Assembly (NCBI RefSeq): GCF_001047675.1
Contig: NZ_CP011975.1
Coordinates: 3,822,073 to 3,886,072 of the forward strand
DNA: 64,000 nt
Reading direction: 5' to 3'
DNA from: Yersinia aleksiciae
GTDB taxonomy: Bacteria > Pseudomonadota > Gammaproteobacteria > Enterobacterales > Enterobacteriaceae
Position numbers and translations under genes: made by a program. Below, piece after piece: positions 23,277 through 45,188 of this stretch. The first letter of the stretch is position 1, and each line of letters opens with the position of its first letter. The notes under the pieces are model-generated. The model was not told the DNA's origin, ran no database searches, and saw only the letters and a program-made list of their open reading frames with translations.

Positions 23277-23368
23277 ATAACAATGCTCCGGGTATCAGCA
23301 ATCGGTGTGCAATAAGCAGCGGAGACCATCATCACCCCAGCGGCTAAACCCGCGCAAAGCCTTGTTAT

Positions 23369-23386
23369 TGTAAGAGACCTGCTACA
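23369..23386. promoter_or_regulatory. Ogr-binding site between O and P
   Basis: TGT-AAGAGACCTGCT-ACA fits TGT-N12-ACA. Its centre is about 101 bases from the O start, compatible with a promoter for O. For P it would put transcription start at the P ATG, so P may use another promoter or a leaderless transcript. Confidence 0.6.
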
Positions 23387-23433
23387 ACTTTATCGCCTCG
23401 CCGACAGTCACGCGGGCGCGATAGCCTAGCCTC

Positions 23434-25152
23434 ATGAACAAATTAGCCCCCGATTCTGCACGCGATGCCCGTAGTCTTTACTGGCAGGGATACCAGATAT
23501 CCCATATCGCCAAACTGACCGGTTTCAACGTGCATACGCTGTACTCCCGGCGCAAGCGTGAGAACTGGGACAAAACCGCGCCCCTTGACCGGGTGCGCTT
23601 TACCACTGAGGCCCGTTATAACCAACTGATTGATAAAACCGAGAAAAGCGGGCGGGATTTTAAAGAGATTGATTTGCTGGCGCGCCAACTGGTGCGCTTT
23701 GACCGCCAGCTGAATAATGAGGGTGGCGAGGGTCGTAAGAAACTGCCGAAAAATCATTTCAGTGATGAACAGATCGCGCAGTTGAGAGCGCGGTTTTACG
23801 ATGGGCTTTATGAGCACCAAAAGCGTTGGTATAAAGCCAAAAGTCTGGCGATCACTATCCGCAATATCCTCAAGTCGCGCCAGATTGGGGCAACTTGGTA
23901 TTTTTCCCGCGAAGCGCTGATCGATGCATTGGAAACCGGCCGTAATCAGATATTCCTGTCCGCCTCTCGCGCTCAGGCGCATCAGTTTAAGCGCTTTATT
24001 ATCAAGTTTGCCGCCGAGGTGGGCGTCGAGTTGAAAGGCGATCCGATTATGCTGTCCAACGGTGCCGAGCTGCATTTCCTTGGCACCTCGGCGGCGTCGG
24101 CGCAATCGTATACCGGCAACCTGTATTTCGATGAATATTTTTGGACGAGTAATTTTATCAATCTGCGCAGCGTGGCCGCTGGGATGGCAACACAGAGCGG
24201 GCTGATAGAAACCTATTTCTCTACCATCTCCAGTGAGGAACACGAAGCCTATCGTTTCTGGTCGGGCGAGCTGTTCAACGACGGCCGCAAAAAGGCTGAC
24301 CGCGTCAACATTGATATCACCCACAAGAACCTGAAAAACGGCAAGATTTGCGCGGATATGCAGTGGAAGCAGATCGTGACAGTGAAAGACGCTGCGGGGT
24401 TGGGTTTTGACCGTATCGATATTGACGACCTAATCGCCAAGAAATCCCCGGATGAATTCAACAACCTGTACATGTGCCAGCCCATCACCAATGGCGAGCG
24501 GCCATTCTCTTACAGTGAGTTGATTAACTGCGGCGTGGATGGCTGGAATGCGGGCGTGTGGGACGACTGGCGGCCCTATTCGCCACGACCGCTGGGCAAT
24601 ACGCCGGTGTGGATTGGCTACGACCCCAACGGGGAAGGTGAAGGGGGCGACAGTGCCGGACTGGTGGCAATTGCGCCGCCACAGGTGGAAGGGGGTAAGT
24701 TCCGCGTGCTGGAAGCTATTCAGTTGCGCGGGATGCCGTTTGAACTTCAGGCGGAGGAGATCAGGAAAATGACCCAGCGCTATAACGTGCAGTTTATCGG
24801 TATTGACGGCACCGGCATTGGCGGCGCGGTGCATTCGCTGGTACTGAAATTCTTCCCGACCGCCGTGAAATTTGTCTACAGCATCAGCGTGAAGTCTGCT
24901 TTGGTCCTCAAGGCGCAGATGGTGATGCGTCGAGGCCGTTTTGAGTATGACGCTGGGCTAAGTGTTATCGCTCAATCCTTTATGACTATCCGTAAATCAG
25001 TGACACCGGGCGGAATGACGACCTATGTGTCTGACCGTTCCAAAGGGGCCAGCCACGGCGACGTGGCGTGGGCCATCATGCACGCATTGCAAAATGAACC
25101 GATTGGCGCAGAAACCGGCAGCACCGGCGGCGGCTTTGTACAGGAGTTTTAA
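23434..25152 (+). CDS. P: Terminase ATPase subunit gpP
   Basis: ATP-driven motor that packages DNA. The 572-residue protein has an N-terminal HTH (YWQGYQISHIAKLTGFNVHTLYSRR), a Walker A-like SRQIGATW near 150, the Walker B LYFDEYFW near 230, and a C-terminal nuclease domain with GYDPNGEG, IGIDGTGIG and SHGDVAWAIMHAL. Length is near P2 P (590). It is divergent from O and forms an operon with Q. Confidence 0.96.
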   Translation: MNKLAPDSARDARSLYWQGYQISHIAKLTGFNVHTLYSRRKRENWDKTAPLDRVRFTTEARYNQLIDKTEKSGRDFKEIDLLARQLVRFDRQLNNEGGEGRKKLPKNHFSDEQIAQLRARFYDGLYEHQKRWYKAKSLAITIRNILKSRQIGATWYFSREALIDALETGRNQIFLSASRAQAHQFKRFIIKFAAEVGVELKGDPIMLSNGAELHFLGTSAASAQSYTGNLYFDEYFWTSNFINLRSVAAGMATQSGLIETYFSTISSEEHEAYRFWSGELFNDGRKKADRVNIDITHKNLKNGKICADMQWKQIVTVKDAAGLGFDRIDIDDLIAKKSPDEFNNLYMCQPITNGERPFSYSELINCGVDGWNAGVWDDWRPYSPRPLGNTPVWIGYDPNGEGEGGDSAGLVAIAPPQVEGGKFRVLEAIQLRGMPFELQAEEIRKMTQRYNVQFIGIDGTGIGGAVHSLVLKFFPTAVKFVYSISVKSALVLKAQMVMRRGRFEYDAGLSVIAQSFMTIRKSVTPGGMTTYVSDRSKGASHGDVAWAIMHALQNEPIGAETGSTGGGFVQEF

Positions 25153-25154
25153 CC

Positions 25155-26186
25155 GTGGAAATGAAGACTATTTTACCCGCAACACCCGCTGATGCACCGC
25201 CAACCCAGCAGCCCATCTCGACAATGGAATCGTTCACTTTTGGCGACCCGACGCCGGTATTGGATCAGCGCGACTTATTGGATTGCATGGAGTGCGCCCG
25301 CAATGGTGACTGGTATGAGACGCCGATCAGCTTCTATGGGCTGGCGCGTATTTTTCACTCAGCCATTCACCACCAATCACCGCTTAATTTTAAACGCCGG
25401 GTATTGATGAGTTGCTACCGGCCGCACCCGTTATTGTCCCGTGCTGATGCCGGGGCATTCGTGCAGGATTTTCTGGTGTTCGGTAATGCCTATCTTGAAC
25501 TGCGCAAGAATCGCTTGGGCGGCCCGCTGGCACTGAAGCATGTCCCGGCCAAGTACATGCGGCGCGGGAGCGATTTGGATCAGTATTGGTTTGTGACCTA
25601 CGAGAAAGAGGACTACGCCTTTGCGGCTGGATCGGTGTTCCATCTGGCCGAGCCGGATATCCATCAGGAAATTTACGGCTTGCCGGGGTATCTGGCGGCC
25701 ATCCCGTCGGCGTTGCTCAATGAGGACGCTACGCTGTTCCGGCGCAAGTATTATATTAACGGCAGTCATGCCGGGGTGATTGTTTATCTGTCTGATGCCA
25801 TGCAGAACGATACCGATGTGCAGGCACTAAAACGCACCCTGACCGATGCCAGAGGGAAGGGAGCATTCAAGAACGTATTTGTGTACGCGGCAGGCGGGAA
25901 GAAAGACGGCCTGCAAATCATGCCCTTCAGTGAAATAACCGCCAAGGATGAGTTTAATGGCATCAAGAACGTGACTCGTGATGATTTACTGGCCGCGCAC
26001 CGCGTACCGCCACAGCTGATGGGGATCATGCCGACCAATACCAGCGGTTTTGGGGATGTGGAGAAGGCCGCGAAGGTGTTCGCCATCAACGAGCTGTACC
26101 CCATCATGGAAGATCTCAAAGCCCTGAATGATTGGATCGGTGTTGATGTATTCCAGTTCAACCCCTACGCACTGGCCGAGGCTTAA
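25155..26186 (+). CDS. Q: Portal protein gpQ
   Basis: Dodecameric portal at the capsid vertex. The 343-residue protein matches P2 Q in length and pattern: FTFGDPTPVLDQRDLLDCMEC, YGLARIFHSAIHH, FQDFLVFGNAYLE-type core, AHRVPPQLMGIMPTNTSGFGD and the closing FNPYALAE. A GTG start at 25155 has AGGAG eight bases upstream (in the P stop region); an ATG two codons later is the alternative. It is the last late gene before the cos-like gap. Confidence 0.95.
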   Translation: MEMKTILPATPADAPPTQQPISTMESFTFGDPTPVLDQRDLLDCMECARNGDWYETPISFYGLARIFHSAIHHQSPLNFKRRVLMSCYRPHPLLSRADAGAFVQDFLVFGNAYLELRKNRLGGPLALKHVPAKYMRRGSDLDQYWFVTYEKEDYAFAAGSVFHLAEPDIHQEIYGLPGYLAAIPSALLNEDATLFRRKYYINGSHAGVIVYLSDAMQNDTDVQALKRTLTDARGKGAFKNVFVYAAGGKKDGLQIMPFSEITAKDEFNGIKNVTRDDLLAAHRVPPQLMGIMPTNTSGFGDVEKAAKVFAINELYPIMEDLKALNDWIGVDVFQFNPYALAEA

Positions 26187-34487: not shown

Positions 34488-35468
34488 ATGAGTATTAAGT
34501 CACTTGGCGCTGAAGGCTATATGGTCGATGTGCGGCCACAGGGTCGTGAAGGGAAGCGTGTTCGTAGGAAATTCAAAACCAAAGCTGAAGCGCAGCAATA
34601 TGAACGCTGGGTTATTTCTACACAGAATAATAAAGATTGGGTAGATAAACCCGCAGATCAAAGACCGTTGCTAGACCTAATCGAACTATGGTGGAAACAT
34701 CACGGCCAGAATATGAAAGATGGGGTAAAGCGGGCGCATAAATTACGCGTTATGGCCGCAAAAATGGGCCATCCAAAAGCGAGCCAAATCACACGCACAT
34801 TCTTCTCTGACTATCGCGCATTACGGCTGGCTGAAGGCAAAAAAGCAAAAACCGTTAACCTCGATCAGGAAATGTTAGGTGGTGTATTTTCCGTTCTTAT
34901 TGAATTGGGACATTACCATAGTGAACATCCACTGAAGGCAATGAAAAAAATCAAGTTGCCTGCTCAGGAAATGGGCTTTCTAACAAATGATGAAATCAGG
35001 ACTTTGCTCAGTCGATTAGAGGGGGATCATCTGAAGGCTGTGAAGTTATGTCTAGCGACAGGAGCCAGATGGGGAGAAGTCGCCAAGCTTCGTAGGGATG
35101 AAGTTATCGGTAATAAGGTGATTTACCTCGATACGAAAAATAGTAAAAATAGAACAGTCCCTATATCGCATGAATTATGCGTGCAATTAACCGATGGAAT
35201 TAAAACAGGCCCGTTGTTTAAGTCTTTAAATTATCCCTATGTAAGAACCTGCGTCAAAGAAGTTGCTCCGGGCCTACCCGCAGGGCAAGCCGTGCACGTT
35301 TTACGCCATACGTTTGCCAGCCATTTTATGATGAATGGCGGCAACATTCTGGCGCTCCAGAAGATTTTAGGGCATTCAAATATTCTACAAACAATGACTT
35401 ATGCGCACTTTGCGCCTGACTATCTGGAAGATGCGGTTCGTTTTAATCCATTAATAAGAAACATATAG
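34488..35468 (+). CDS. int: Tyrosine integrase
   Basis: Site-specific recombinase for integration at the ptsG terminator. The 326-residue protein has an N-terminal arm-binding part, a SAM-like core-binding domain (about 58-155), and catalytic residues R194 (TGARWGE), a lysine in KNSKNR (217-222), H270 and R273 (HVLRH), H296 (LGHSN) and the nucleophile Y305. It lies downstream of C in P2 order and points to attR. Confidence 0.95.
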   Translation: MSIKSLGAEGYMVDVRPQGREGKRVRRKFKTKAEAQQYERWVISTQNNKDWVDKPADQRPLLDLIELWWKHHGQNMKDGVKRAHKLRVMAAKMGHPKASQITRTFFSDYRALRLAEGKKAKTVNLDQEMLGGVFSVLIELGHYHSEHPLKAMKKIKLPAQEMGFLTNDEIRTLLSRLEGDHLKAVKLCLATGARWGEVAKLRRDEVIGNKVIYLDTKNSKNRTVPISHELCVQLTDGIKTGPLFKSLNYPYVRTCVKEVAPGLPAGQAVHVLRHTFASHFMMNGGNILALQKILGHSNILQTMTYAHFAPDYLEDAVRFNPLIRNI

Positions 35469-35478
35469 AGGTTATAGA

Positions 35479-35604
35479 ATGAAGACTAGACGAGAAGTCA
35501 AAATTGGTAACCTTGTGATCATCAGAAGTATATCCACTCATATAAATGAGTGTGTAATGCTCTCCGGAGCAGGCATCATTACTTTTTGGAGAACCAAGTT
35601 GTGA
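35479..35604 (+). CDS. Small 41-residue ORF at the head of the HEPN cassette
   Basis: The ATG at 35479 has AGAGG seven bases upstream. The frame runs 41 codons (MKTRREVKIGNLVIIRSIST...) and its TGA overlaps the GTG of the next gene as GTGA. The ribosome site and the overlap favour a translated leader or small partner protein. No similarity is recognised; it could also be just a coupling leader peptide. Confidence 0.45.
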   Translation: MKTRREVKIGNLVIIRSISTHINECVMLSGAGIITFWRTKL

Positions 35605-36380
35605 TACAACCTAAATTGAAATCGGAAGAGTATTTTAACGCATTGCAAGACAGCTTAACTAATGGTGGAAAACTGTCAGAATTCGAATACAAGAAAATTA
35701 TAAAGGATTTAAATAACGATAAAAGTAGTACTGCTATATGTGCAATAGGATACGCTCATGCAGTGATGGGAAATAATGATGATGCTATTAACTGGTTCGA
35801 ATCATTCTCGCCTTTTACTGAGTTAGTTACACTAAAAGCATATGGTTCTTTACTTAGAATCTTAGGTAGAAATAGAGAACTGATAAATTTGACTTTAAAC
35901 TACTCCGATTCATTTAAAGACATTTGGTTCTCCTGGATGAGTATGGAGTATTATTATATAATTGGTGACATTGCGAACTCAGCAAGAAAAGCGAGGGAGT
36001 TTTTATCTATGTTGCCAGAAAATAAAAATAAAGAACGTGCAGAATATTCAATATCTCAACAACTTGATTCTTTATCTCGCGTCTATAAATCAGGATATTG
36101 CACGCCAGAACAGTTTAAAATGGTCTCTGATTTAACATTAGATATATTAGATAAGTATCACTACCCACTCCGCTACGTTGAACTTTTTTATTATGAAGGA
36201 GAAGGCGCTAGTTATGAAATTGGGATTTCTTTAGATAATGATGATTTCAAAACTCTTTCAAATTTAAATGATGAATTAATAAAACGGATGATAAAAATAA
36301 AAGAACTTGATACTTGCGAAGTCACACCTTGTTTCTCCGAGGGTGGTATGTCTAACTGGAGATATATTCATGGCGCTTAA
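35601..36380 (+). CDS. TPR-like helical protein of the int-proximal cassette
   Basis: The GTG at 35601 has GGAG nine bases upstream and gives 259 residues starting MIQPKLKSEEYFNALQ; an in-frame ATG at 35550 lacks a ribosome site. Helical repeats are visible, for example AICAIGYAHAVMGNNDDAINWFES and LKAYGSLLRILGRNRELINL, resembling TPR units, with no enzyme motif. It overlaps the HEPN gene by 11 bases and is AT-rich compared with int. The position next to attR fits an accessory (moron) gene. Function unknown; a partner or antitoxin of the HEPN protein is one possibility. Confidence 0.65.
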   Translation: MIQPKLKSEEYFNALQDSLTNGGKLSEFEYKKIIKDLNNDKSSTAICAIGYAHAVMGNNDDAINWFESFSPFTELVTLKAYGSLLRILGRNRELINLTLNYSDSFKDIWFSWMSMEYYYIIGDIANSARKAREFLSMLPENKNKERAEYSISQQLDSLSRVYKSGYCTPEQFKMVSDLTLDILDKYHYPLRYVELFYYEGEGASYEIGISLDNDDFKTLSNLNDELIKRMIKIKELDTCEVTPCFSEGGMSNWRYIHGA

Positions 36381-36765
36381 TAACAACGACTTCCTACTTT
36401 CAGCTATTGCTAATTTCAAATTCAATAATGAAGTAGGCTACCGTAACGCGATCTCGCGTGCATATTACTCTACGTACCATAAGAGCTTGTCACAAGTCGT
36501 AAAAATGCCCGCAACTCGTTCTAGTCATCATGTAGCACTGATTCAGTATCTTGCTAGTGAGCAGTGTTTCCAAAATGAGCAGTACGAAGAAGAAACATTA
36601 AAAGAACTTTCACGTTGTATGAAGCAGTTAAGGAATGCGAGGAATAAGGCCGACTATAAACTTGACACAACAATAAAGAAAACTGTGGCGGAAGAGAATA
36701 TGGCATTGGCACATAGGATTTTCGATTTGTGGGGGGACTCGCAGGAAAAACTTAATGACCGGTAA
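36370..36765 (+). CDS. HEPN-domain-like protein
   Basis: The ATG at 36370 overlaps the upstream stop; the longer frame to 36307 would extend into the TPR-like gene. The 131-residue helical protein has the HEPN-style YRNAISRAYYSTYHKSL (residues 24-40) and LRNARNKADYKLD (87-99), the R-x-x-ADY type found in UPF0332-like HEPN proteins. Many HEPN proteins are RNases in toxin or defence systems. The standard R-x4-6-H motif is not clear here apart from R30-x6-H37, so catalysis is uncertain. The attR hairpin would terminate its transcript. Confidence 0.7.
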   Translation: MALNNNDFLLSAIANFKFNNEVGYRNAISRAYYSTYHKSLSQVVKMPATRSSHHVALIQYLASEQCFQNEQYEEETLKELSRCMKQLRNARNKADYKLDTTIKKTVAEENMALAHRIFDLWGDSQEKLNDR

Positions 36766-36900: not shown

Positions 36901-36931
36901 GGAGGCTTATGCCTCCCTTTTTTTATGGTTT
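36901..36931. repeat. Prophage attachment site, right (attR core)
   Basis: Exact 31-base copy of 4324-4354. It contains the hairpin GGAGGC-TTAT-GCCTCC plus seven T residues, so the host also keeps a terminator at this junction. The next host gene stops only ten bases further on the opposite strand. Confidence 0.9.
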
Positions 36932-36940
36932 TTCCAGGCC

Positions 36941-37879
36941 TTAAAACGGCTTTACCAGCAGCCGTTGAGCGGGGAAGTCGATGACGACGGCGAATTTAGC
37001 GAGGAAGTTATTACCGATTAATCCATCGGCATCCATCTGCTTGAATGCGCCGTCTAATAATATCGCATTCAGTTTTATGCCCTCGGTGCCCATTTCGCCA
37101 AGCTGAAACGCCGAAGCCACGCAATCGTCAATGTCTCCATCAATACGCACTTCTGCCAGCACGGCGCCGCAAGGGATATCAGTAACAGGTGATTTCAACC
37201 GCTCTCGCCAAAAAACTGAGATGGTGGCCCCGGTATCCAAAACCATGTTGTACTGTTTTTCATCGTGAGTGACTTTAATTTCAATCCCTTCTTGTGTGAG
37301 CCGTAGGGGTAATGAGAGCCAACCATCAGCCATATTGATACCTAAAGCGAGAGCGCTATCAGCAACAGAGAGGCGCTGACTTTTGTAATCAATCAACAAC
37401 GCTTTTTCTTTGAATAAGCTCAAGCCAATGACCATCGACTCTGGGATAGTGCTATCGGGGGTGATATTCAGCCCCCAAGGGGCGAAGGAAACCCCTTTAA
37501 CGTCCTTAAATGTCATGCCATTGATGAGAAGCAGTGGGATGTGAAATTTATCATTAAAAGAGACTTTTCCCGCCAGATCGATAGTGCGATGTTTTCCTGA
37601 GTCGAGTACCAATCCGGGGAGTTGAGACATAAACTCGTTGGTTAAATGCAGCGCGGTGCCGGAACCCGTATCGATTGAAAATGCTTGGCGCATGCCGTTG
37701 ATGTCAACATTAACCAAGGGTATCGACGCCTCATCCCACTCAAAAGGCATATGCATAACTTTTTCTGCCCCGTGAGCATTAAGGGTAGCCAGCGAGATGA
37801 CGCAGGATAAGAGGGCGCAGGTGATAGCTGTAATGTGATTTTTGAGTAACATTATGATTTTATTTAATAAAGGGAACAT
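36941..37879 (-). CDS. Retropepsin-like aspartic protease of the RiPP cluster
   Basis: The start at 37879 has AAGGA eight bases upstream and overlaps the exporter stop. The 312-residue protein has an N-terminal hydrophobic signal/anchor (about 17-36), so it acts at or beyond the inner membrane. Two aspartyl motifs are visible: D70-TG in FSIDTGSGTALHL and D215-TGA in MVLDTGATISVFW, each in a repeat-like half, as in a two-lobed pepsin-like fold. It is the last gene of the RiPP operon and may trim or degrade the exported peptide. The role is inferred from context. Confidence 0.8.
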   Translation of the reverse strand: MFPLLNKIIMLLKNHITAITCALLSCVISLATLNAHGAEKVMHMPFEWDEASIPLVNVDINGMRQAFSIDTGSGTALHLTNEFMSQLPGLVLDSGKHRTIDLAGKVSFNDKFHIPLLLINGMTFKDVKGVSFAPWGLNITPDSTIPESMVIGLSLFKEKALLIDYKSQRLSVADSALALGINMADGWLSLPLRLTQEGIEIKVTHDEKQYNMVLDTGATISVFWRERLKSPVTDIPCGAVLAEVRIDGDIDDCVASAFQLGEMGTEGIKLNAILLDGAFKQMDADGLIGNNFLAKFAVVIDFPAQRLLVKPF

Positions 37880-40001
37880 GAGGATTTTCCTTATCCATTT
37901 TCATTTCAGCGTGGGTGCTGAGGTCAAATACCCGGTCCGCCATGGCTATCATGGTTGGGCGGTGGGCAACAAAAATTCGGGTGATTTTCAGCGCGCGGAT
38001 CGCATCATTAATTCGGGCTTCATTATCGATATCCAGATCACTGGTCGCTTCGTCGAGAAAGAGTATTCGTGGGCGTTTGTACAAGGCGCGGGCCAGAGAA
38101 ATACGTTGCCGTTGCCCACCGGATAGGGCGCTGCCCATATCACCGACCCTGGTTTCATACTTCATTGGCATGGCTTCAATCTCAGAATGAATTGAAGAAA
38201 GTCGAGCGCACTCAAATACCCATTCGGTATCTGGATGAATATCAAATGAGCTGATGTTATCCAGCAAAGATCCGGCAAAGAGCCGATCTTCTTGCAAGAC
38301 ATAGGCGATATGTTTGCGATAGACGCTGAGGCCCAATCGGCGCACATCTACGCCATCCAATAAGATGGCACCGCGTTCTTGCGGGGCTAACCCCCCCATT
38401 GTTTTAAGCAGTGTCGATTTACCACAACCCGATGGCCCGATGATAGCGAGGCTTTCTCCCGCCTTGATGGAGAGCGAAACATTTTCAAATATGGCGGGTT
38501 CGCCGTCACCATAGCGATAGCACAGCTCTTTTACCTCGATACTGCCCGCGACGCTGCTGGGGATAACCCAATCAGCTTCACCTTCATCAGGTTCAGGTGT
38601 GGCTAGAGCGACTTCTGAGAGGCGTTCGCTGTGCATATCGATCAGGCGGAGTTTGATGATCGAGTCAACCACGCGGAGGGTTCGCGTAATGTACATGTCC
38701 GAGTAAATCAAAAACGCGAACAGCATACCGGTGGTCATGGTACCGTCATCAATCAGCCTTGCGCCCAACCACAATATCATTGCGCAAGAGAGTCCGATTA
38801 ACAGCAGGCCCATAGTCTGAGTCGCCAGATCTATTTTAAACAGGTAGATTTTTGCATTGGCCTCATCAATCACCAAATTGAGCCAATCGGAGCGCCGCCG
38901 CTCTGATAAATCAAAGATTTTAACGCAAGTGATGCCTCGCACCGTTTCAAGAAAATGCGAGTGTTGTTTCGCCTCATGAGCAATAGCTTCAAGGTTGGCG
39001 GAGCGGTAGGCGGGAAAAAGAAATAGCTGTAGGGCGACATACAAACAGGATATTGAGATAACCGCTGCCGCGAGGTAGCCATTGTAGATCCACATTAAGA
39101 AGATCAATCCAATCACCATCACGATATCCAGCAGTGACGCGACCATCTCCGCCGTAAAAGCATCTTGCACCACCGACAGCGAGTTAAAGCGCGAGGTCAC
39201 ATCACCCACATGGCGTTTTTCGAAGTAGGAAACGGGCAATCGGATCAAATGGCTAAAAAGCCCAGCACTCCATTGAATACCCAACGAGTACTTCACGGAC
39301 ATGACAGTCCAAGAACGAACCAGACTGAGCAAGGCTCTAAAGAGCAATAGAGCAATCATCCCCCACACTATAAGTGAAACTAAATCGATATCACCGGATT
39401 GTAAGGCCATATCAATCGTGAATTGCGCCGCCATCGGCGCTGCCATCGTCAGCAGCTCAATACAAAATGAGAGCACCAAGACATGGGCTATCGCCCGTGG
39501 TAACCCAGACACGTTTTTGAACATATCCAGCAGTCGGATGACTTGCTTTTCAGTGCGTCGCTGAAAATGCGGATTCGGCCAGATCTCCAGTGCGACACCA
39601 GTAAAGTGTTGAGATAGCTGAGTCAGAGTGATTCGTCTCTCGCCTTTGGCCGGGTCATGGATAATCGCCCCGTGACGAGAAAATTTCTTCAGTACCACAA
39701 AATGGTTGAATGACCAGTGCAAAATGCAGGGGGTTTTAAGCTGACGGACGGCATCTAAATCAGCGCGCACTGGACGTGCCCCTAATGAGAGTCGGTCTGC
39801 CAGTACGATAAGATCTCGTAACGTCATCCCCTTCAGCGACACTTGATAGTGTTTACGCAGTGCCTGAAGATCGATGTTAAGGCCATGATAGCTGGCAATC
39901 ATCGCCATACATGCCAGCCCGCACTCCGTAGCTTCTGTTTGCATCACCACCGGCAGGCGCTGTCGCAGGGCTGCAAAGTAGCCTTTCATCGCCAAAATCA
40001 T
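37860..40001 (-). CDS. Peptidase-containing ABC exporter (C39 type)
   Basis: Cleaves the double-glycine leader of the precursor and exports the core peptide. The 713-residue protein has an N-terminal C39 protease with C27 (QTEATECGLA), H100 (FNHFVVL) and D116 (IHDPAKG). Membrane helices at about 170-440 follow, then an ATPase domain with Walker A GPSGCGKST, signature ALSGGQRQR and Walker B ILFLDEATSDLD. All catalytic residues are present. It overlaps the adaptor gene by four bases and the protease gene by 20. Confidence 0.95.
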   Translation of the reverse strand: MILAMKGYFAALRQRLPVVMQTEATECGLACMAMIASYHGLNIDLQALRKHYQVSLKGMTLRDLIVLADRLSLGARPVRADLDAVRQLKTPCILHWSFNHFVVLKKFSRHGAIIHDPAKGERRITLTQLSQHFTGVALEIWPNPHFQRRTEKQVIRLLDMFKNVSGLPRAIAHVLVLSFCIELLTMAAPMAAQFTIDMALQSGDIDLVSLIVWGMIALLLFRALLSLVRSWTVMSVKYSLGIQWSAGLFSHLIRLPVSYFEKRHVGDVTSRFNSLSVVQDAFTAEMVASLLDIVMVIGLIFLMWIYNGYLAAAVISISCLYVALQLFLFPAYRSANLEAIAHEAKQHSHFLETVRGITCVKIFDLSERRRSDWLNLVIDEANAKIYLFKIDLATQTMGLLLIGLSCAMILWLGARLIDDGTMTTGMLFAFLIYSDMYITRTLRVVDSIIKLRLIDMHSERLSEVALATPEPDEGEADWVIPSSVAGSIEVKELCYRYGDGEPAIFENVSLSIKAGESLAIIGPSGCGKSTLLKTMGGLAPQERGAILLDGVDVRRLGLSVYRKHIAYVLQEDRLFAGSLLDNISSFDIHPDTEWVFECARLSSIHSEIEAMPMKYETRVGDMGSALSGGQRQRISLARALYKRPRILFLDEATSDLDIDNEARINDAIRALKITRIFVAHRPTMIAMADRVFDLSTHAEMKMDKENPHVPFIK

Positions 40002-41290
40002 GCCGCCCCTCCTGACTCACTTTGCACCTTGTTGCGGCTGTTGTTGAGGGGCCAAAGTAACCATTCATAGAGCGGGCGTTTTCTGATGAAAATATCGGTT
40101 TCAACCCCGATTCCGGGGCGCAGAGGGTAGGTTTTCCCCGCCATAAGCACCGCATTATTTTTGGGGGTGATGCGTATTTGAAAATACCTGCGCGGAGATT
40201 GATAAGTCCGCTCTCCACTTGCGCTTACCCCCCTGTCGGCGGCGGAAACAGTGGCGGCGGAAACGGAGGTGACAACGCCGTCGTATTGCCCAAACCATTG
40301 GTACGGATAGGCGTCGAAGCGCAATCTTACCGTCTGGCCTTCTCGTAACTCGCCAATGGCGTCAGAAGGGGCAAAAACTTCCACCTCGGACCGCCCTGAG
40401 GTGGGAACCACAGTGGCTAACTCTTGCCCCGCCTGAATAGTGTTGCCAGTAAGCCCGATAAAGCCGGTTAATATGCCCTCTATCGGCGCGGTGATATGCA
40501 GCTCCCGCTGCACTTCCGTCGCGACTAAATCGTGATCTAACTGTGCAGCTTGTCGATGCAGTCTCTCTAATGAGGCTTCAACGGCACTGTTGAGCGCTGC
40601 GAGCCTGGCCTCAATATCGAGGATCTCGCCTTGTAACTTAACCCTTTGCCGCTGGTGGGCTTTAAGCTGGACTGCGGCACTATAATACTCAGAGCGCCGC
40701 GCCATATGTTCAGTCTCAAGGGCTATCCCTTGACGAACTAACGTTTTGAAATGTTCGGTTTTTTCCAGTAGCCATGCAGTTTGCTGAGTAGATTTAGCAA
40801 TCAAATCATCCATTTTTTGCTGCTCTGCATCCCTATTTTTCAAGCGCTGAAGCAGAAAGTTGCGCTCAGTTTCTGATGCCTCAGACGTTAGGGCGATCTC
40901 CCGTTCTATCGCCGTTTTCTGAGCTTTTAGCGCCACTGTAATTTCATGGCTGGTCGCGCCATACTCTGTTTGCGTCTCCCTATTCAGGATAAAAATCACC
41001 TCGCCCGCACGAACGGCTTTTCCTTCCTCCGCAACGCTACTGACAATAACGCCATCATGGGAAGCAATAATCCGCGCCACCGCAGGTTGGTGAACCACGG
41101 TGCCAGTCAGACGAGCTCTCTGAGTGTAAGTCCCCATCACCATGAAAGTGATCAAGCTGACAATCAGTACCAGCGCGACCATTGCCCAAAGGGAGGCTCC
41201 CACTGGTGTCATCACTTGTGGGCTGCCTAACCAATAATGGGATCGATGCTCTATCGCTTCTTGCCTGAAAATAGGATGTATATTGACCAA
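39998..41290 (-). CDS. HlyD-family membrane fusion protein
   Basis: Periplasmic adaptor linking the ABC exporter to an outer-membrane channel. The protein has one N-terminal membrane helix (about 32-55), a biotinyl-lipoyl-like half (GTVVHQPAVARIIASHDGVI), a long coiled-coil hairpin (about 115-250), and the second half with APIEGILTGFIGLTGNTI. No ATG fits; TTG at 41290 has AGGAG ten bases upstream and gives 430 residues. A TTG at 41320 is possible but without a ribosome site. The outer-membrane partner would be TolC, which is not in this window. Confidence 0.9.
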   Translation of the reverse strand: MVNIHPIFRQEAIEHRSHYWLGSPQVMTPVGASLWAMVALVLIVSLITFMVMGTYTQRARLTGTVVHQPAVARIIASHDGVIVSSVAEEGKAVRAGEVIFILNRETQTEYGATSHEITVALKAQKTAIEREIALTSEASETERNFLLQRLKNRDAEQQKMDDLIAKSTQQTAWLLEKTEHFKTLVRQGIALETEHMARRSEYYSAAVQLKAHQRQRVKLQGEILDIEARLAALNSAVEASLERLHRQAAQLDHDLVATEVQRELHITAPIEGILTGFIGLTGNTIQAGQELATVVPTSGRSEVEVFAPSDAIGELREGQTVRLRFDAYPYQWFGQYDGVVTSVSAATVSAADRGVSASGERTYQSPRRYFQIRITPKNNAVLMAGKTYPLRPGIGVETDIFIRKRPLYEWLLWPLNNSRNKVQSESGGAA

Positions 41291-41337: not shown

Positions 41338-42519
41338 CTATTGGCTAATTGCCGCCATAATGCGCTCTTCCTTGATGCCCATATTGAGTAGGTGAGCGGA
41401 TGCACGGCTAAGAAAACTTCTCATGGAATAGCAATAAACAGATTTGCGGTTGAAGCGATCCTCGGGGGAAAAACGATTCATGATGCGGCCACCGGCACAG
41501 ACCTTTGCCCAAATACAGTTTTCACATTCGGTGGGGAGTGATTGCCCGATTAAGGTGTACTCTTGGAATTGAGGGCTATCCAATACCTCAGAAAGGCTGA
41601 TGTCAGAAACATGACCAATGGGATCGAAAATTCGGTCTGATGTGGCGCGTAAAGTATCATCCACGCGAATAAAACCATCTGAACCAACAGTGCAGGCATA
41701 GGCACCGGTGACTTCGGGGGTATGACCCAAGACGCCAACCTTGGCACCGAGTAGAGTCGCAATGTGTGTCTGAAATAGGCGGACAAAAATCTTAGGGTTA
41801 TCATCCTTCACCCACTCATCCAACGCCTCGTTGAGAAAGCGGCCCATGCTGATGGGGTCAACGTGGTCATCACTGTAAGCGTCGTCGGGTATCAGAAGGT
41901 CAAAACCATAAACCCCCAGATCATCAACGAAGTGTCGATAGATTTCAGTACCACTTGCCTGCGGGTTCGCCACACATAAAATACCGGGGGCAGCCCGAAG
42001 TCGACCCTGTTGATGGGCATGTTGAAGTCTTCGTAGGCCACGAACAGTCCCTTCGTAGGTACTGCGCCCTTTGGTGTCTAGCCGATGGCGATCATTAATA
42101 TGTTTGGGGCCATCGATCGAAATACTGACGTGTATAGAATATTTTTCGAACAAAGATATCCATTCGTCATCAACAAGAGTGCCGTTAGTTTGTAGGGCCA
42201 AATTAATATTCGAACCACAATAGTCAGCCATCATTAATAGCTCGCACATGCTGGCGAAATTCTCTTTCTTCATTAACAGCGGCTCTCCACCATGAAGATC
42301 AATTTGGAGGGTGCCAATGCTATACTCCCGACAGGCTCGTTGTAAAAAACCGACTAACTGAAGAATATTTTTGTTGGAAATTCTAGCGGGACTGTTATCC
42401 GCGATGGTGTTACCTTTATTGTATACGTAGCAATAGTCGCAATTAATATTACAGCGCTCACTTATCTTTAATATTATTTCCAAGTGCTTAATTCTTTTCT
42501 CACTTGATATATTGACCAT
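41338..42519 (-). CDS. xyeB: Radical SAM/SPASM peptide maturase (XyeB-like)
   Basis: Predicted to form carbon-carbon cross-links in the precursor encoded just upstream. The 393-residue protein has the iron-sulfur motif C23-x3-C27-x2-C30 (CNINCDYC), the DLHGGEPLL SAM-binding strand and a C-terminal SPASM-type cysteine set (C276, C332, C335, C341, C363). A GGAG lies nine bases before the ATG. XYE maturases join an aromatic ring to the beta carbon two residues later (three-residue cyclophanes). Assignment to that family rests on the maturase, the core motifs and the transporter context. Confidence 0.88.
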   Translation of the reverse strand: MVNISSEKRIKHLEIILKISERCNINCDYCYVYNKGNTIADNSPARISNKNILQLVGFLQRACREYSIGTLQIDLHGGEPLLMKKENFASMCELLMMADYCGSNINLALQTNGTLVDDEWISLFEKYSIHVSISIDGPKHINDRHRLDTKGRSTYEGTVRGLRRLQHAHQQGRLRAAPGILCVANPQASGTEIYRHFVDDLGVYGFDLLIPDDAYSDDHVDPISMGRFLNEALDEWVKDDNPKIFVRLFQTHIATLLGAKVGVLGHTPEVTGAYACTVGSDGFIRVDDTLRATSDRIFDPIGHVSDISLSEVLDSPQFQEYTLIGQSLPTECENCIWAKVCAGGRIMNRFSPEDRFNRKSVYCYSMRSFLSRASAHLLNMGIKEERIMAAISQ

Positions 42520-42551: not shown

Positions 42552-42601
42552 GGACTGTAGGGCGAATAAATCGGCGAAATAGGGGCCACCGATGGCAGTC
42601 C
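42552..42601 (-). promoter_or_regulatory. Intercistronic stem-loop between precursor and maturase genes
   Basis: GGACTG at 42552-42557 pairs with CAGTCC at 42596-42601, and within it ATCGG at 42570-42574 pairs with CCGAT at 42589-42593. No T-run follows on the minus strand. It may act as a partial terminator or RNA end protector that keeps precursor mRNA in excess. Confidence 0.5.
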
Positions 42602-42616
42602 CTATTTTGTTGAAAA

Positions 42617-42772
42617 TTAGAACGATTTCCCCCATCTTAGAAATGCATTGACCCAACCACCAGAAATCTGTTCAAGAACATCCTCCGCCAAGCGCTGAGG
42701 CTGATTTTTTTTCACTTCGCTAACATTAATAACAGTCTTAGTTGCCGTGATCTCTTTCTTCAAACGAGACAT
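42617..42772 (-). CDS. xyeA: RiPP precursor peptide (XyeA-like, double-glycine leader)
   Basis: A short gene with a strong GGAGG eight bases before its ATG at 42772. The 51-residue peptide starts MSRLKKEITATK and its leader ends LAEDVLEQISGG at residues 28-39. The Gly-Gly matches the C39 exporter cleavage site. The 12-residue core is WVNAFLRWGKSF, holding three aromatic-X-X motifs: WVN, FLR and WGK. These are the substrates of XYE-type cyclophane-forming maturases. It lies directly upstream of the maturase, adaptor and exporter on the same strand. The cross-linked product is inferred, but the precursor call is well supported. Confidence 0.88.
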   Translation of the reverse strand: MSRLKKEITATKTVINVSEVKKNQPQRLAEDVLEQISGGWVNAFLRWGKSF

Positions 42773-43246
42773 AATTTATCCCTCCATTGATTATCTATAC
42801 CAAGAAACTTCTTCCTGGATTCGTCCGTTAAGGAAAGTATTATTACGCCGATCTTGATTTTGAGTTATGGAAATAAACTAATTATATAAGGTTAATATTA
42901 TGACTAAAGGCAATTGTATGTATTCCTACTCTCCTTGAATTAGAAATATCATTGATAATGGGCTTGTGTCAAATGCTAATATCATTTTTATTCGCTGAGA
43001 TTGAGTGGTGAATATAAATAATCTTAAGCGTTAATATTAATGGGTTAATTTAAATGGAGTCGTAATTCTGCATGGACAATAAAAGTATAATATTAATGTA
43101 AACAGTTGTCCTGTTTTAATAAAATAAAGGTGGGTTATTGCCGATGTAATAATAAGAGCCTTGCAGTATAAATTACTCAATATTTGTTATTGAGTAATAT
43201 TTCATTGAGCGAATACAGTTAGTCATATTCTTAACGTGGATTGCAA
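42773..43246. other. AT-rich gap upstream of the RiPP precursor gene
   Basis: 474 bases without a supported gene. It must hold the promoter of the minus-strand RiPP operon, but no single -35/-10 pair stands out in this AT-rich sequence. A plus-strand frame of 12 codons at 42900 was not accepted. A palindrome at 43171-43198 is listed separately. Confidence 0.6.
43171..43198. terminator. Palindrome downstream of the SgrR-family gene
   Basis: ATTACTCAATA and TATTGAGTAAT form an eleven-pair inverted repeat with a short TTTGT-type loop, about 50 bases past the SgrR-like stop. It may end that transcript, but no long T-run follows; a protein-binding palindrome is the alternative. Confidence 0.4.
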
Positions 43247-45043
43247 CTATTCCGGCTCTAGCCAGGTGGTTTGGAAATCAAACCAGCCCAGATTATTCAG
43301 GTGTGCCCCCTGTGCCTGTTCAGGGGCTTTTAGGCGCATCCAGTGATGAAATAGGGGTTGTAACCAACCGCTCGCGGTCACTTCCCTGACAAATTGCTCG
43401 CTACTGAGTTTGTGATTACGCCACTCATTCTGGTGTATCTGCAAACAACTCCCATCACCGCCAGTAATGGATTGACGTAATAGTGAGGTGCCTAACAACC
43501 ATGCGCCGACATTCCACTCTTCCGGCACGGCAAAGTTCACCGTCCCGAGCCACAAGTCCGCATCCGCTTCACCCTTGGCCCAAGTGGCGTAATCCAGCTC
43601 CAATGACGTTAGCTGAATGCCCTGTGTCGCCAGAATATGAGTCATTTCTGCGATCAGCATCGAATATTCTGGGTGCTGGGCATGGTAGGCCAAGGTGAGT
43701 GTCGGCCGATCCTCGGTCGTGGTTTCCATGGCGAATGGCGAACATGCTTCCCCTGAATCTATCCCGTGGAACCAGGTAGGCAACACACTGCTGGCAGGAA
43801 CCCAAAAAGGGCGGATTGGTGCGATTAATCCTTGGATCAAATGATAAGGATTGAGGGTTTCCCGCAGCCAGCGCCGCTGCTCGATACGGTGCCAGTGCGC
43901 TGAGCGACTATCGCAGAGTAGAAAATAGCCGCCACGCTCAAGGAACATCTCCTGAGTTGAGTCCGAGGGTTTGCCGGTCAGGCTGGCCGCGAAGCCGGAG
44001 ACATAATCAATGTCGCTGATACTGGAACTCAGCCAGGTTGCGCTTTGAAGCTGGGCAATATCCAGTTGCTCAGCGAGTACGGGCGGGGTCACTACGGGTT
44101 GATTCGCTTGAGTGCGCGCCAGATCAGGGAAAATCAGCACCTCAACTTCATCCAGCAGGCCACGGAAACCAAAATAGTGATCAAAGGATTTCATCAGCAG
44201 ATGCCAGTCATCGTTTTCGGCAACCCGATAGGGGCCGGTGCCAATAGGGTGAGAGGCAAAATTCGGCTGTGCGGCATGGTCTTGCGGTAAAATCAGTGCC
44301 GAATGGTGAGCCAGTAGCAAGGGGAGATGTGGGTCCGGCTGATTCAATTCGATAACGACACTCAATGGACCGTGCGCAGTAATTTGCTGAATATGTGAGA
44401 ACAGCGGTAAGTGGGTGCAACGAGTTAATGAGCTGACCACATCATGGCTGGAAAGCTCCCGCCCATCATGAAATTGCACCGCAGGGCGTAAATAGAAGCG
44501 CCAATGTAATGGATCTAGCATGCGCCATTTATGGGCTAAATCGGTTGCGACCTCGCCATTCTCCTCATTTATCCGCGTCAGTCCGTTAAAAATTTGCCGC
44601 ACTAAATGCAGCTCGGAGCGACGTAATGGCGTGCCAGGGTAGAGATTTACCATGGTGCGGTAGTAGGGAATGCGCAGCGCTTGATAGTCATCACGTATCC
44701 GATAACCCAGCTTGCTGCGCAACAACGGCGCGATGAGCTGCTTATCTTCACCCAGCAGGGCAATCGCTTCATTGAAGCCACCAGAGTCGAGCAACTGTTC
44801 CGCTTTTTCAATCAATAATTGGTGCGTGTTCCGCAATAGTTGTAAATGTGAACGACGGCCTCGACCCGCCTCTGCCTGCCATACTAACCAGCCCGCTTGT
44901 TGCATTTGAACCAGTAAGGTCCGCATATGGCGCTTGGTGCAGCTGAGTTTGTCGGCCAATTCTTGCAGAGTAATTGACGTCGGTTGCACACCGACCAGAT
45001 TCAGTAATCTCAAATATTGTTGCTCAAGGCGTCGGCTGGTCAT
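43247..45043 (-). CDS. sgrR: SgrR-family transcriptional regulator
   Basis: Sugar-phosphate stress regulators of this family join a DNA-binding domain to a solute-binding-like domain. The 598-residue protein (ATG at 45043; the ribosome site is weak) has an N-terminal HTH (TLQELADKLSCTKRHMRTLLVQM, about 22-45) and the family block TPLRRSELHLVRQIFNGLTR...NEENGE near 140-170. It then carries an ABC-solute-binding-protein-like region ending NNLGWFDFQTTWLEP. It matches SgrR better than YbaE by eye, but is longer than E. coli SgrR (551), and no sgrS was found next to it. Orthology is therefore uncertain. Confidence 0.75.
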   Translation of the reverse strand: MTSRRLEQQYLRLLNLVGVQPTSITLQELADKLSCTKRHMRTLLVQMQQAGWLVWQAEAGRGRRSHLQLLRNTHQLLIEKAEQLLDSGGFNEAIALLGEDKQLIAPLLRSKLGYRIRDDYQALRIPYYRTMVNLYPGTPLRRSELHLVRQIFNGLTRINEENGEVATDLAHKWRMLDPLHWRFYLRPAVQFHDGRELSSHDVVSSLTRCTHLPLFSHIQQITAHGPLSVVIELNQPDPHLPLLLAHHSALILPQDHAAQPNFASHPIGTGPYRVAENDDWHLLMKSFDHYFGFRGLLDEVEVLIFPDLARTQANQPVVTPPVLAEQLDIAQLQSATWLSSSISDIDYVSGFAASLTGKPSDSTQEMFLERGGYFLLCDSRSAHWHRIEQRRWLRETLNPYHLIQGLIAPIRPFWVPASSVLPTWFHGIDSGEACSPFAMETTTEDRPTLTLAYHAQHPEYSMLIAEMTHILATQGIQLTSLELDYATWAKGEADADLWLGTVNFAVPEEWNVGAWLLGTSLLRQSITGGDGSCLQIHQNEWRNHKLSSEQFVREVTASGWLQPLFHHWMRLKAPEQAQGAHLNNLGWFDFQTTWLEPE

Positions 45044-45188
45044 AAAAGGGGAACTCAATTAAAGAAAAGTCAGCAGTTTTTTATCTCACCTTTTTAGCCG
45101 ATAATTTTTAACACAGCAAGCTTTGTTGCCCACAACGTGGTACTTACTGGGCGCATACCCTATTTACGATGATATTTGAGGTAGAAAG

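What the first reader, a model, noticed from the sequence alone, without database searches (positions are those of the whole stretch)
42617..42772. Overlooked 51-residue RiPP precursor with three aromatic-X-X motifs
A short minus-strand gene with a strong ribosome site encodes a leader ending in Gly-Gly and the core WVNAFLRWGKSF. It lies right before a radical SAM/SPASM enzyme and an exporter with a C39 leader protease. The WVN, FLR and WGK motifs are the pattern expected for three-residue cyclophane (XYE, xenorceptide-like) peptides, some of which are antibacterial.
Basis: partly seen in the sequence, partly recalled or inferred. Interest (0 to 1): 0.85.

Follow-up and report, generated by a model that had tools for sequence, protein, structure and literature searches.

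The report
XyeA-family cyclophane peptide gene, Yersinia
This is a real small gene of a known family (XyeA) that should make a 12-residue, triply cross-linked, probably antibacterial peptide; the family is already catalogued, but its operon also carries a little-noticed protein-cutting enzyme whose role is open and testable.

Summary
Window 42617-42772 (minus) encodes a 51-residue peptide with a good ribosome site, a Gly-Gly leader and the core WVNAFLRWGKSF. It opens a five-gene operon: precursor, radical SAM/SPASM maturase, HlyD adaptor, C39-peptidase ABC exporter, and an exported two-lobed aspartic protease.

It is not overlooked as a kind. The precursor scores 102 bits against NCBIfam TIGR04495 (XyeA, cut-off 33), the maturase 744 against TIGR04496 (XyeB, cut-off 450), and a homologue on a Xenorhabdus plasmid is annotated xyeA. 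The three aromatic-X-X motifs hold in 15 of 15 aligned precursors, with ring-for-ring swaps. So: a new member of the triceptide/xenorceptide kind; cross-links and activity are inferred.

Not found in the papers I could search: (1) the protease is in the xye loci examined with two exceptions, yet relatives with both catalytic Asp stand alone, 15 copies in 13 regions, one in a Xenorhabdus with its own xye operon but grouping with Photorhabdus/Yersinia proteases. A Vibrio xye operon lacks it. This fits (cross-)immunity somewhat better than maturation; unproven. (2) In 8 of 9 Yersinia carriers the operon occupies one chromosomal site; alleles are exchanged between lineages and 4 of 9 are broken.

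The parts
42617..42772 (-). xyeA, 51-aa precursor; leader 1-39 ending GG, core 40-51 WVNAFLRWGKSF with motifs W-V-N, F-L-R, W-G-K
   Evidence: (TIGR04495 102 bits, cut-off 33)
42780..42785 (-). ribosome binding site GGAGGG, 7 nt before the ATG
   Evidence: sequence
42577..42607 (-). stem-loop just after the xyeA stop, before xyeB; likely RNA 3' stabiliser or partial terminator that lets the precursor be made in excess (inference)
   Evidence: 100-nt fold (the 60-nt fold pairs the window differently); stem-loops at the same place in relatives, energy z <= -2 in 12 of 15
41338..42519 (-). xyeB, radical SAM/SPASM three-residue-cyclophane maturase
   Evidence: TIGR04496 744 bits, cut-off 450; C23, C27, C30 and C332, C335, C341 invariant in 20 sequences
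39998..41290 (-). HlyD-family periplasmic adaptor (TTG start assumed)
   Evidence: PF13437 E 1.7e-16
37860..40001 (-). ABC exporter with N-terminal C39 leader peptidase
   Evidence: PF03412 E 1.4e-38, PF00664, PF00005
36941..37879 (-). two-lobed (pepsin-like) aspartic protease with an N-terminal hydrophobic helix, DTG in both lobes; overlaps the exporter gene by 20 nt
   Evidence: PF13650 39.6 bits, cut-off 24.3; alignments; AlphaFold2 pLDDT 87, pTM 0.81; Foldseek pepsin fold
36901..36916 (.). terminator-like hairpin after the last gene
   Evidence: weak: the region holds no more such sites than shuffles

Best explanation
An intact-looking XyeA-type triceptide (xenorceptide-like) operon of a Yersinia species. 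The precursor is recognised by its leader, XyeB joins the ring of residue i to the beta-carbon of residue i+2 three times (W1-N3, F5-R7, W8-K10; minus 6 H), the C39 exporter cuts after Gly-Gly and exports the 12-residue product with the HlyD adaptor, and the peptide most likely acts against Gram-negative competitors at BamA, as reported for xenorceptide A2. Shown: the genes, their order, family membership, motif conservation. Inferred from the family: cross-links, cleavage, export, target.
For: TIGR04495 and TIGR04496 far above curated cut-offs. XyeA homologue beside XyeB in 24 of 27 loci. In 15 of 15 aligned precursors core positions 1, 5, 8 are aromatic (W; F or Y; W or F) and positions 3, 7, 10 are N; R/N; K/R/N, while 6 and 9 vary: ring and beta-carbon partner are kept, as the chemistry needs. 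XyeA is mostly under purifying selection among close pairs (dN 0.11, dS 1.32, own vs G005; see full report for weaker pairs). Stem-loops after the precursor at the same place in relatives. A review passage describes XncB making Trp-Arg/Asn and Phe-Asn links (PMC11002830); another says xenorceptide A2 inserts as an extra strand between BamA strands 1 and 16 (PMC12971899). Predicted product [M+H]+ 1504.748 against 1510.795 linear.
Against: No mass, NMR or activity data. The Phe-Arg and Trp-Lys links needed here are not among those named for XncB in the passage read, so two of the three are by analogy. The core differs from tested ones. BamA in carriers shows no distinguishing change, so self-protection is unexplained if BamA is the target.
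Confidence: 0.9

Rival explanations
1. The operon works as above, and the aspartic protease is a maturation enzyme: in the periplasm it trims the exported peptide or cuts a second site.
For: It lies in nearly all xye loci examined and within Yersinia occurs in exactly the 9 of 25 genomes with xye. One precursor (L102) has GGAG before the core Trp, which might need trimming. In 4 broken Yersinia operons it is clearly intact only once.
Against: Vibrio sagamiensis has precursor, maturase, HlyD and exporter but no such protease in the 12 kb locus nor any hit in its 4.5 Mb genome (the same query rings in 23 of 394 genomes). Relatives stand alone in genomes without an XyeB hit at E <= 1e-60. C39 cleavage after GG would already yield a core beginning at the invariant Trp.
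Confidence: 0.3
2. The product is a signal or metal-handling peptide, not an antibiotic.
For: No activity data for this core; C39/HlyD export also serves signals (established knowledge).
Against: Xenorceptides are reported as BamA inhibitors (review passage only); allele exchange and repeated loss look like an interference trait.
Confidence: 0.12
3. Darobactin/dynobactin-type or thioether (sactipeptide/ranthipeptide) RiPP.
For: Same radical SAM/SPASM superfamily; XyeB hits those models weakly.
Against: DarE model 78.8 bits vs cut-off 650, DynA 120.2 vs 450; no Cys in the precursor.
Confidence: 0.02

Closest known systems
XyeA/XyeB systems (NCBIfam TIGR04495/TIGR04496), triceptides; XncA/XncB and xenorceptides
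   Same: Precursor and maturase families, GG leader, three aromatic-X-X motifs, C39 exporter
   Different: Core WVNAFLRWGKSF needing Phe-Arg and Trp-Lys links; protease gene at the operon's end (Yersinia, Photorhabdus) rather than after xyeB (most Xenorhabdus, Serratia, Sodalis loci)
Darobactin / dynobactin (DarE, DynA)
   Same: Radical SAM cross-linked peptides; darobactin acts on BamA (literature)
   Different: Maturase far below those models' cut-offs; different core and links
Pepsin-like aspartic proteases / retropepsins (PF13650; Candida Sap, plasmepsins, Ddi1, B. fragilis 9iy9)
   Same: Fold and two catalytic Asp motifs of the fifth gene product
   Different: Small, with an N-terminal hydrophobic helix, in a bacterial RiPP operon; 9-16% identity in the listed fold matches

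Membership tests
XyeA triceptide precursor (TIGR04495) | Score above curated cut-off, full length | tested here: met
   102 bits vs 33, profile 1-50 of 50
XyeA triceptide precursor (TIGR04495) | Encoded next to an XyeB maturase above cut-off | tested here: met
   744 bits vs 450; adjacency in relatives
XyeA triceptide precursor (TIGR04495) | GG leader plus a C39 exporter | tested here: met
   PF03412 in the exporter
Triceptide | Aromatic-X-X motifs conserved as ring plus beta-carbon partner | tested here: met
   15 of 15 in A3; divergent precursors left out are listed in the full report
Triceptide | C-C cross-link between ring of i and C-beta of i+2 | not testable with these tools
   needs MS/NMR
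Xenorceptide / bamabactin | Kills Gram-negatives by binding BamA | not testable with these tools
   literature passage only
Darobactin/dynobactin | Maturase above DarE/DynA model cut-off | tested here: not met
   78.8 vs 650; 120.2 vs 450
Ranthipeptide/sactipeptide | Cys in the precursor for thioether links | tested here: not met
   no Cys in P0001
Pepsin-like aspartic protease (fifth gene) | Above Pfam gathering score, catalytic Asp in both lobes, bilobed fold | tested here: met
   39.6 vs 24.3; D69 and D214 invariant in 21; predicted fold
Pepsin-like aspartic protease (fifth gene) | Proteolytic activity, substrate | not testable with these tools
   needs enzyme assay

The most novel reading that the evidence does not exclude
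The fifth gene is the (cross-)immunity factor of cyclophane BamA inhibitors: an exported pepsin-like protease that destroys the cross-linked peptide in the periplasm. It protects the producer, whose BamA shows no distinguishing change, and has been captured by non-producers and rival producers as a stand-alone immunity gene.
Probability: 0.3. Interest if true: 0.68.

Novelty: new member of a known kind. Interest (0 to 1): 0.38.

Why it matters
The window adds an intact-looking Yersinia member, with its own core, to a family reported to include inhibitors of the outer-membrane insertase BamA. More useful is the protease: how producers of BamA-binding peptides survive is open as far as I could read, BamA itself shows no distinguishing change in carriers, and a conserved exported protease with stand-alone relatives is a directly testable candidate for self-protection and for resistance that already exists in nature.

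Tried and rejected
Target change as immunity: BamA of 5 intact-operon Yersinia against 16 without xye (4 with broken operons set apart) shows no alignment column with disjoint residues. In the two stretches printed (columns 416-470 and the last 30, which I take, from memory, to hold the first and last barrel strands) the five carriers are identical to each other and to half of the non-carriers; the others vary at single sites.

A virus or plasmid origin of the operon: the viral-contig scan gave one partial 26% relative of the maturase; the phage collection had no match to the protease; the plasmid collection had one xyeA, and DNA search of the whole operon there gave 42 records; the 20 listed cover 3-4% of the query each, mostly in the exporter gene, and none of the 42 covers 80%. 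A P2-like prophage lies beside the operon; the five operon genes are outside it.

Solved structures by sequence: no meaningful hit for the precursor (best E 5.7). Defence-system library: hits of the maturase to viperin models and weak hits of the protease, best to candidate family PDC-M08B at 24.7 bits; not followed further.

Promoter and terminator scans of the operon gave about as many sites as shuffles (9 against a mean of 10.3; 7 against 6.8).

Retention of the protease after operon decay, which immunity might predict, is not seen in Yersinia: of 4 broken operons it is split in G004, has its first catalytic motif changed (DTG to DTE) in G013, is cut short near a contig end in G010, and is intact only in G023.

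I first noted that the operon lies at one site in all Yersinia carriers; on checking, G010 is an exception.

Literature searches. The primary triceptide papers (doi 10.1038/s41557-020-0519-z, 10.1021/jacs.2c00521) are not held, so they may well treat the protease.

Full report
What is there. The minus-strand gene at 42617-42772 is exactly as described. It opens a five-gene run on the same strand: xyeA; xyeB 41338-42519; HlyD adaptor 39998-41290; ABC exporter with C39 peptidase 37860-40001; and an aspartic protease 36941-37879 that overlaps the exporter gene by 20 nt. The own genome (4.0 Mb, one contig) has one XyeB match. The species is not told.

Family. P0001 is TIGR04495 at 102 bits (cut-off 33), 'XyeA family cyclophane-containing RiPP triceptide'; the maturase is TIGR04496 at 744 bits (cut-off 450). 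A Xenorhabdus bovienii plasmid record carries a 44% identical homologue named xyeA, with xyeB, and the protease as 'hypothetical protein'. The kind is known and annotated.

Core chemistry. Fifteen precursors that looked intact were aligned. Left out before this count: L016 (reads past the expected stop), L028 (no start found), L103/L005, L104, L107/L051 and L108 (broken or partial), L012, L013 and L109 (second fetches of included loci), L110 and L111, L023, L024 and L027 (divergent or partial), and L179 (fetched later). In 15 of 15 the core positions 1, 5 and 8 are aromatic, with Phe to Tyr at 5 in Photorhabdus and Trp to Phe at 8 in Vibrio; position 3 is Asn, 7 Arg or Asn, 10 Lys, Arg or Asn. 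L023 and L024 have different cores, so maturase relatives serve more than this pattern. The predicted product is 1503.741 Da, six hydrogens below the linear 1509.788.

Selection. XyeA dN is below dS in every pair that could be computed (one could not), from 0.11 against 1.32 (own, G005) up to 0.31 against 0.43 (G018, P. heterorhabditis); many dS values are near or beyond saturation, so only the close pairs carry weight.

Expression. In the 15 loci folded, stem-loops lie between xyeA and xyeB soon after the xyeA stop, with stem sequences that differ between genera; over the first 60 nt the energy is at least 2 s.d. below dinucleotide shuffles in 12 of 15.

Distribution. XyeA is in 9 of 25 genomes of the genus, own included; XyeB at E <= 1e-60 in 7 of 25, one with an internal stop. 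Five operons look intact (G000, G005, G014, G016, G018). Four are broken: G004 lacks xyeB, G013 has split xyeB and HlyD and a truncated exporter, G010 has a deletion from xyeB into the exporter, G023 has the precursor in two frames. In a sample of 394 genomes of the order XyeA is found in 4 (3 above cut-off) and XyeB above cut-off in 3, at E <= 1e-60 in 8.

Site and exchange. In the window and 6 other carriers the operon follows a second SgrR-like gene (beside aroE-like, hinT-like and nagZ-like genes); in G005 only a 28-residue remnant of that gene is left; in G010 none of these genes is found in the 7 kb upstream, so there the remnant lies elsewhere. On the other side ptsG follows in G005, G016, G014, G023, G013 and G004; it was not in the stretch held for G018. 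In the window a P2-like prophage sits between ptsG and the operon. Gene names other than SgrR, ptsG and holB are recalled from the sequences. Of 10 xye-free genomes with the SgrR-like gene I fetched 8; in 7 its 3' end faces ptsG at about 65-400 bp (6) or about 1,080 bp (1); in the eighth ptsG was outside the stretch. Y. thracica (G018) and G023 share 94.8% (aroE-like) and 93.1% (SgrR-like) DNA identity but only 73.2% in xyeB and 75.3% in the protease, the drop beginning at the 3' end of the SgrR-like gene; G023 and G013 are 90.6% in xyeB but 84.9% in aroE-like. I read this as replacement of operon alleles between lineages.

The fifth gene. The protein has two retropepsin-like repeats; D69 and D214 are invariant in 21 aligned sequences, C236 nearly so, with a second Cys in most, and an N-terminal hydrophobic helix. 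AlphaFold2 gives a confident bilobed model (pLDDT 87, pTM 0.81); Foldseek matches pepsin-type proteases (best E 9.1e-11, TM about 0.5). Among Yersinia it occurs in exactly the 9 of 25 xye genomes. It is in the xye loci of Yersinia, Photorhabdus, Xenorhabdus, Serratia, Sodalis, Providencia and others, at the operon end or near xyeB. Exceptions: Vibrio sagamiensis L019 (locus and genome) and the 5.9 kb MAG contig L022 (short, so weak). The distant L029 (34% maturase) also had none.

Stand-alone relatives. In the 394-genome sample the protease profile rings in 23 genomes at E <= 1e-10; 17 of these have no XyeB-model hit at E <= 1e-60. I fetched regions from 12 of the 17; the other 5 (G042, G096, G199, G285, G381) gave weaker or partial hits. 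Of 20 regions fetched in all, 14 held 16 copies without an XyeB-profile hit within 9 kb; 3 were xye-like (L224, L231, L232); L235 ends at a contig end beside an exporter; L236 was taken for its maturase; L234 holds a 199-aa partial copy that I left out of the tree. L220 has an exporter and HlyD about 3-6 kb away, L218 and L233 have generic ABC proteins within 9 kb, and L225 lies at a contig end, so 'stand-alone' is weaker there. Both catalytic Asp remain in 24 of 24 linked copies (L235 counted as linked) and 15 of 16 stand-alone copies; L226 is truncated. Six linked copies have DTA or DSA in the second lobe, and L227-L229 have DLG in the first.

Tree. L226 groups with Xenorhabdus copies (1.0). 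The stand-alone copies of one family of 2.4-2.9 Mb genomes (f27) fall with linked copies L111, L224 and L235, but the inner branching is weakly supported (0.31-0.75; 0.90 with L223 and L225). The four copies of L227-L229 form a separate branch (0.97) and may be a different family. Further copies: a Paracoccus plasmid and a Xenorhabdus sp. TH1 plasmid (partial, near transposases) without xye genes in the annotated stretch, and a Vibrio campbellii replicon without an XyeB-profile hit in 15 kb.

Reading. For a pure maturation protease the stand-alone copies and the Vibrio operon without it are hard to explain; for immunity they are expected, and BamA shows no distinguishing change in carriers. 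Against immunity: in decayed Yersinia operons the protease decays too (1 of 4 clearly intact), the exporter alone may protect, Vibrio survives without it, and generic periplasmic roles are possible. I put immunity at 0.3, maturation at 0.3, the rest elsewhere; the corrections made on checking did not change these odds.

Papers. PMC11002830, PMC12971899, PMC12281569, PMC10885120, PMC8939145, PMC11970506 and PMC13310878 were seen as passages only; other titles in listings only. The BamA action rests on a review passage that cites for it the same reference as for a darobactin derivative; I did not see the primary paper. That XYE stands for Xenorhabdus, Yersinia, Erwinia is recalled.

Noticed in passing
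window 43247-45058: A second SgrR-like regulator (562 bits to the SgrR model), distinct from the usual paralogue, present in 17 of 25 genus genomes and facing ptsG in xye-free genomes; it lies upstream of xyeA on the same strand.
   Followed up: partly
window about 4758-35468: P2-like prophage (baseplate hub GPD, sheath, tail tape, terminase, GPA replication protein, tyrosine integrase 34488-35468) between ptsG and the xye operon; ARAGORN finds no tRNA gene in the window.
   Followed up: partly
window 35550-36765: Two ORFs between integrase and operon: a 276-aa protein without a family above cut-off and a 152-aa weak HEPN-like protein (below Pfam cut-off).
   Followed up: no
L230 8955-9863 (G319): Stand-alone Photorhabdus/Yersinia-type aspartic protease in a Xenorhabdus that has its own xye operon.
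   Followed up: yes
L106 / L108: Operon allele replacement with a breakpoint near the 3' end of the SgrR-like gene.
   Followed up: partly
L107 (G010, matches Y. aldovae contig): A decayed xye operon at a different site, on the same contig as bamA (bamA at 23345-25657, xyeA at 39759-39887).
   Followed up: no
L102 7415-7573: Precursor with GGAG instead of GG before the core Trp, leaving two possible cleavage points.
   Followed up: no
L220 8462-10552: Two tandem copies of the aspartic protease.
   Followed up: no
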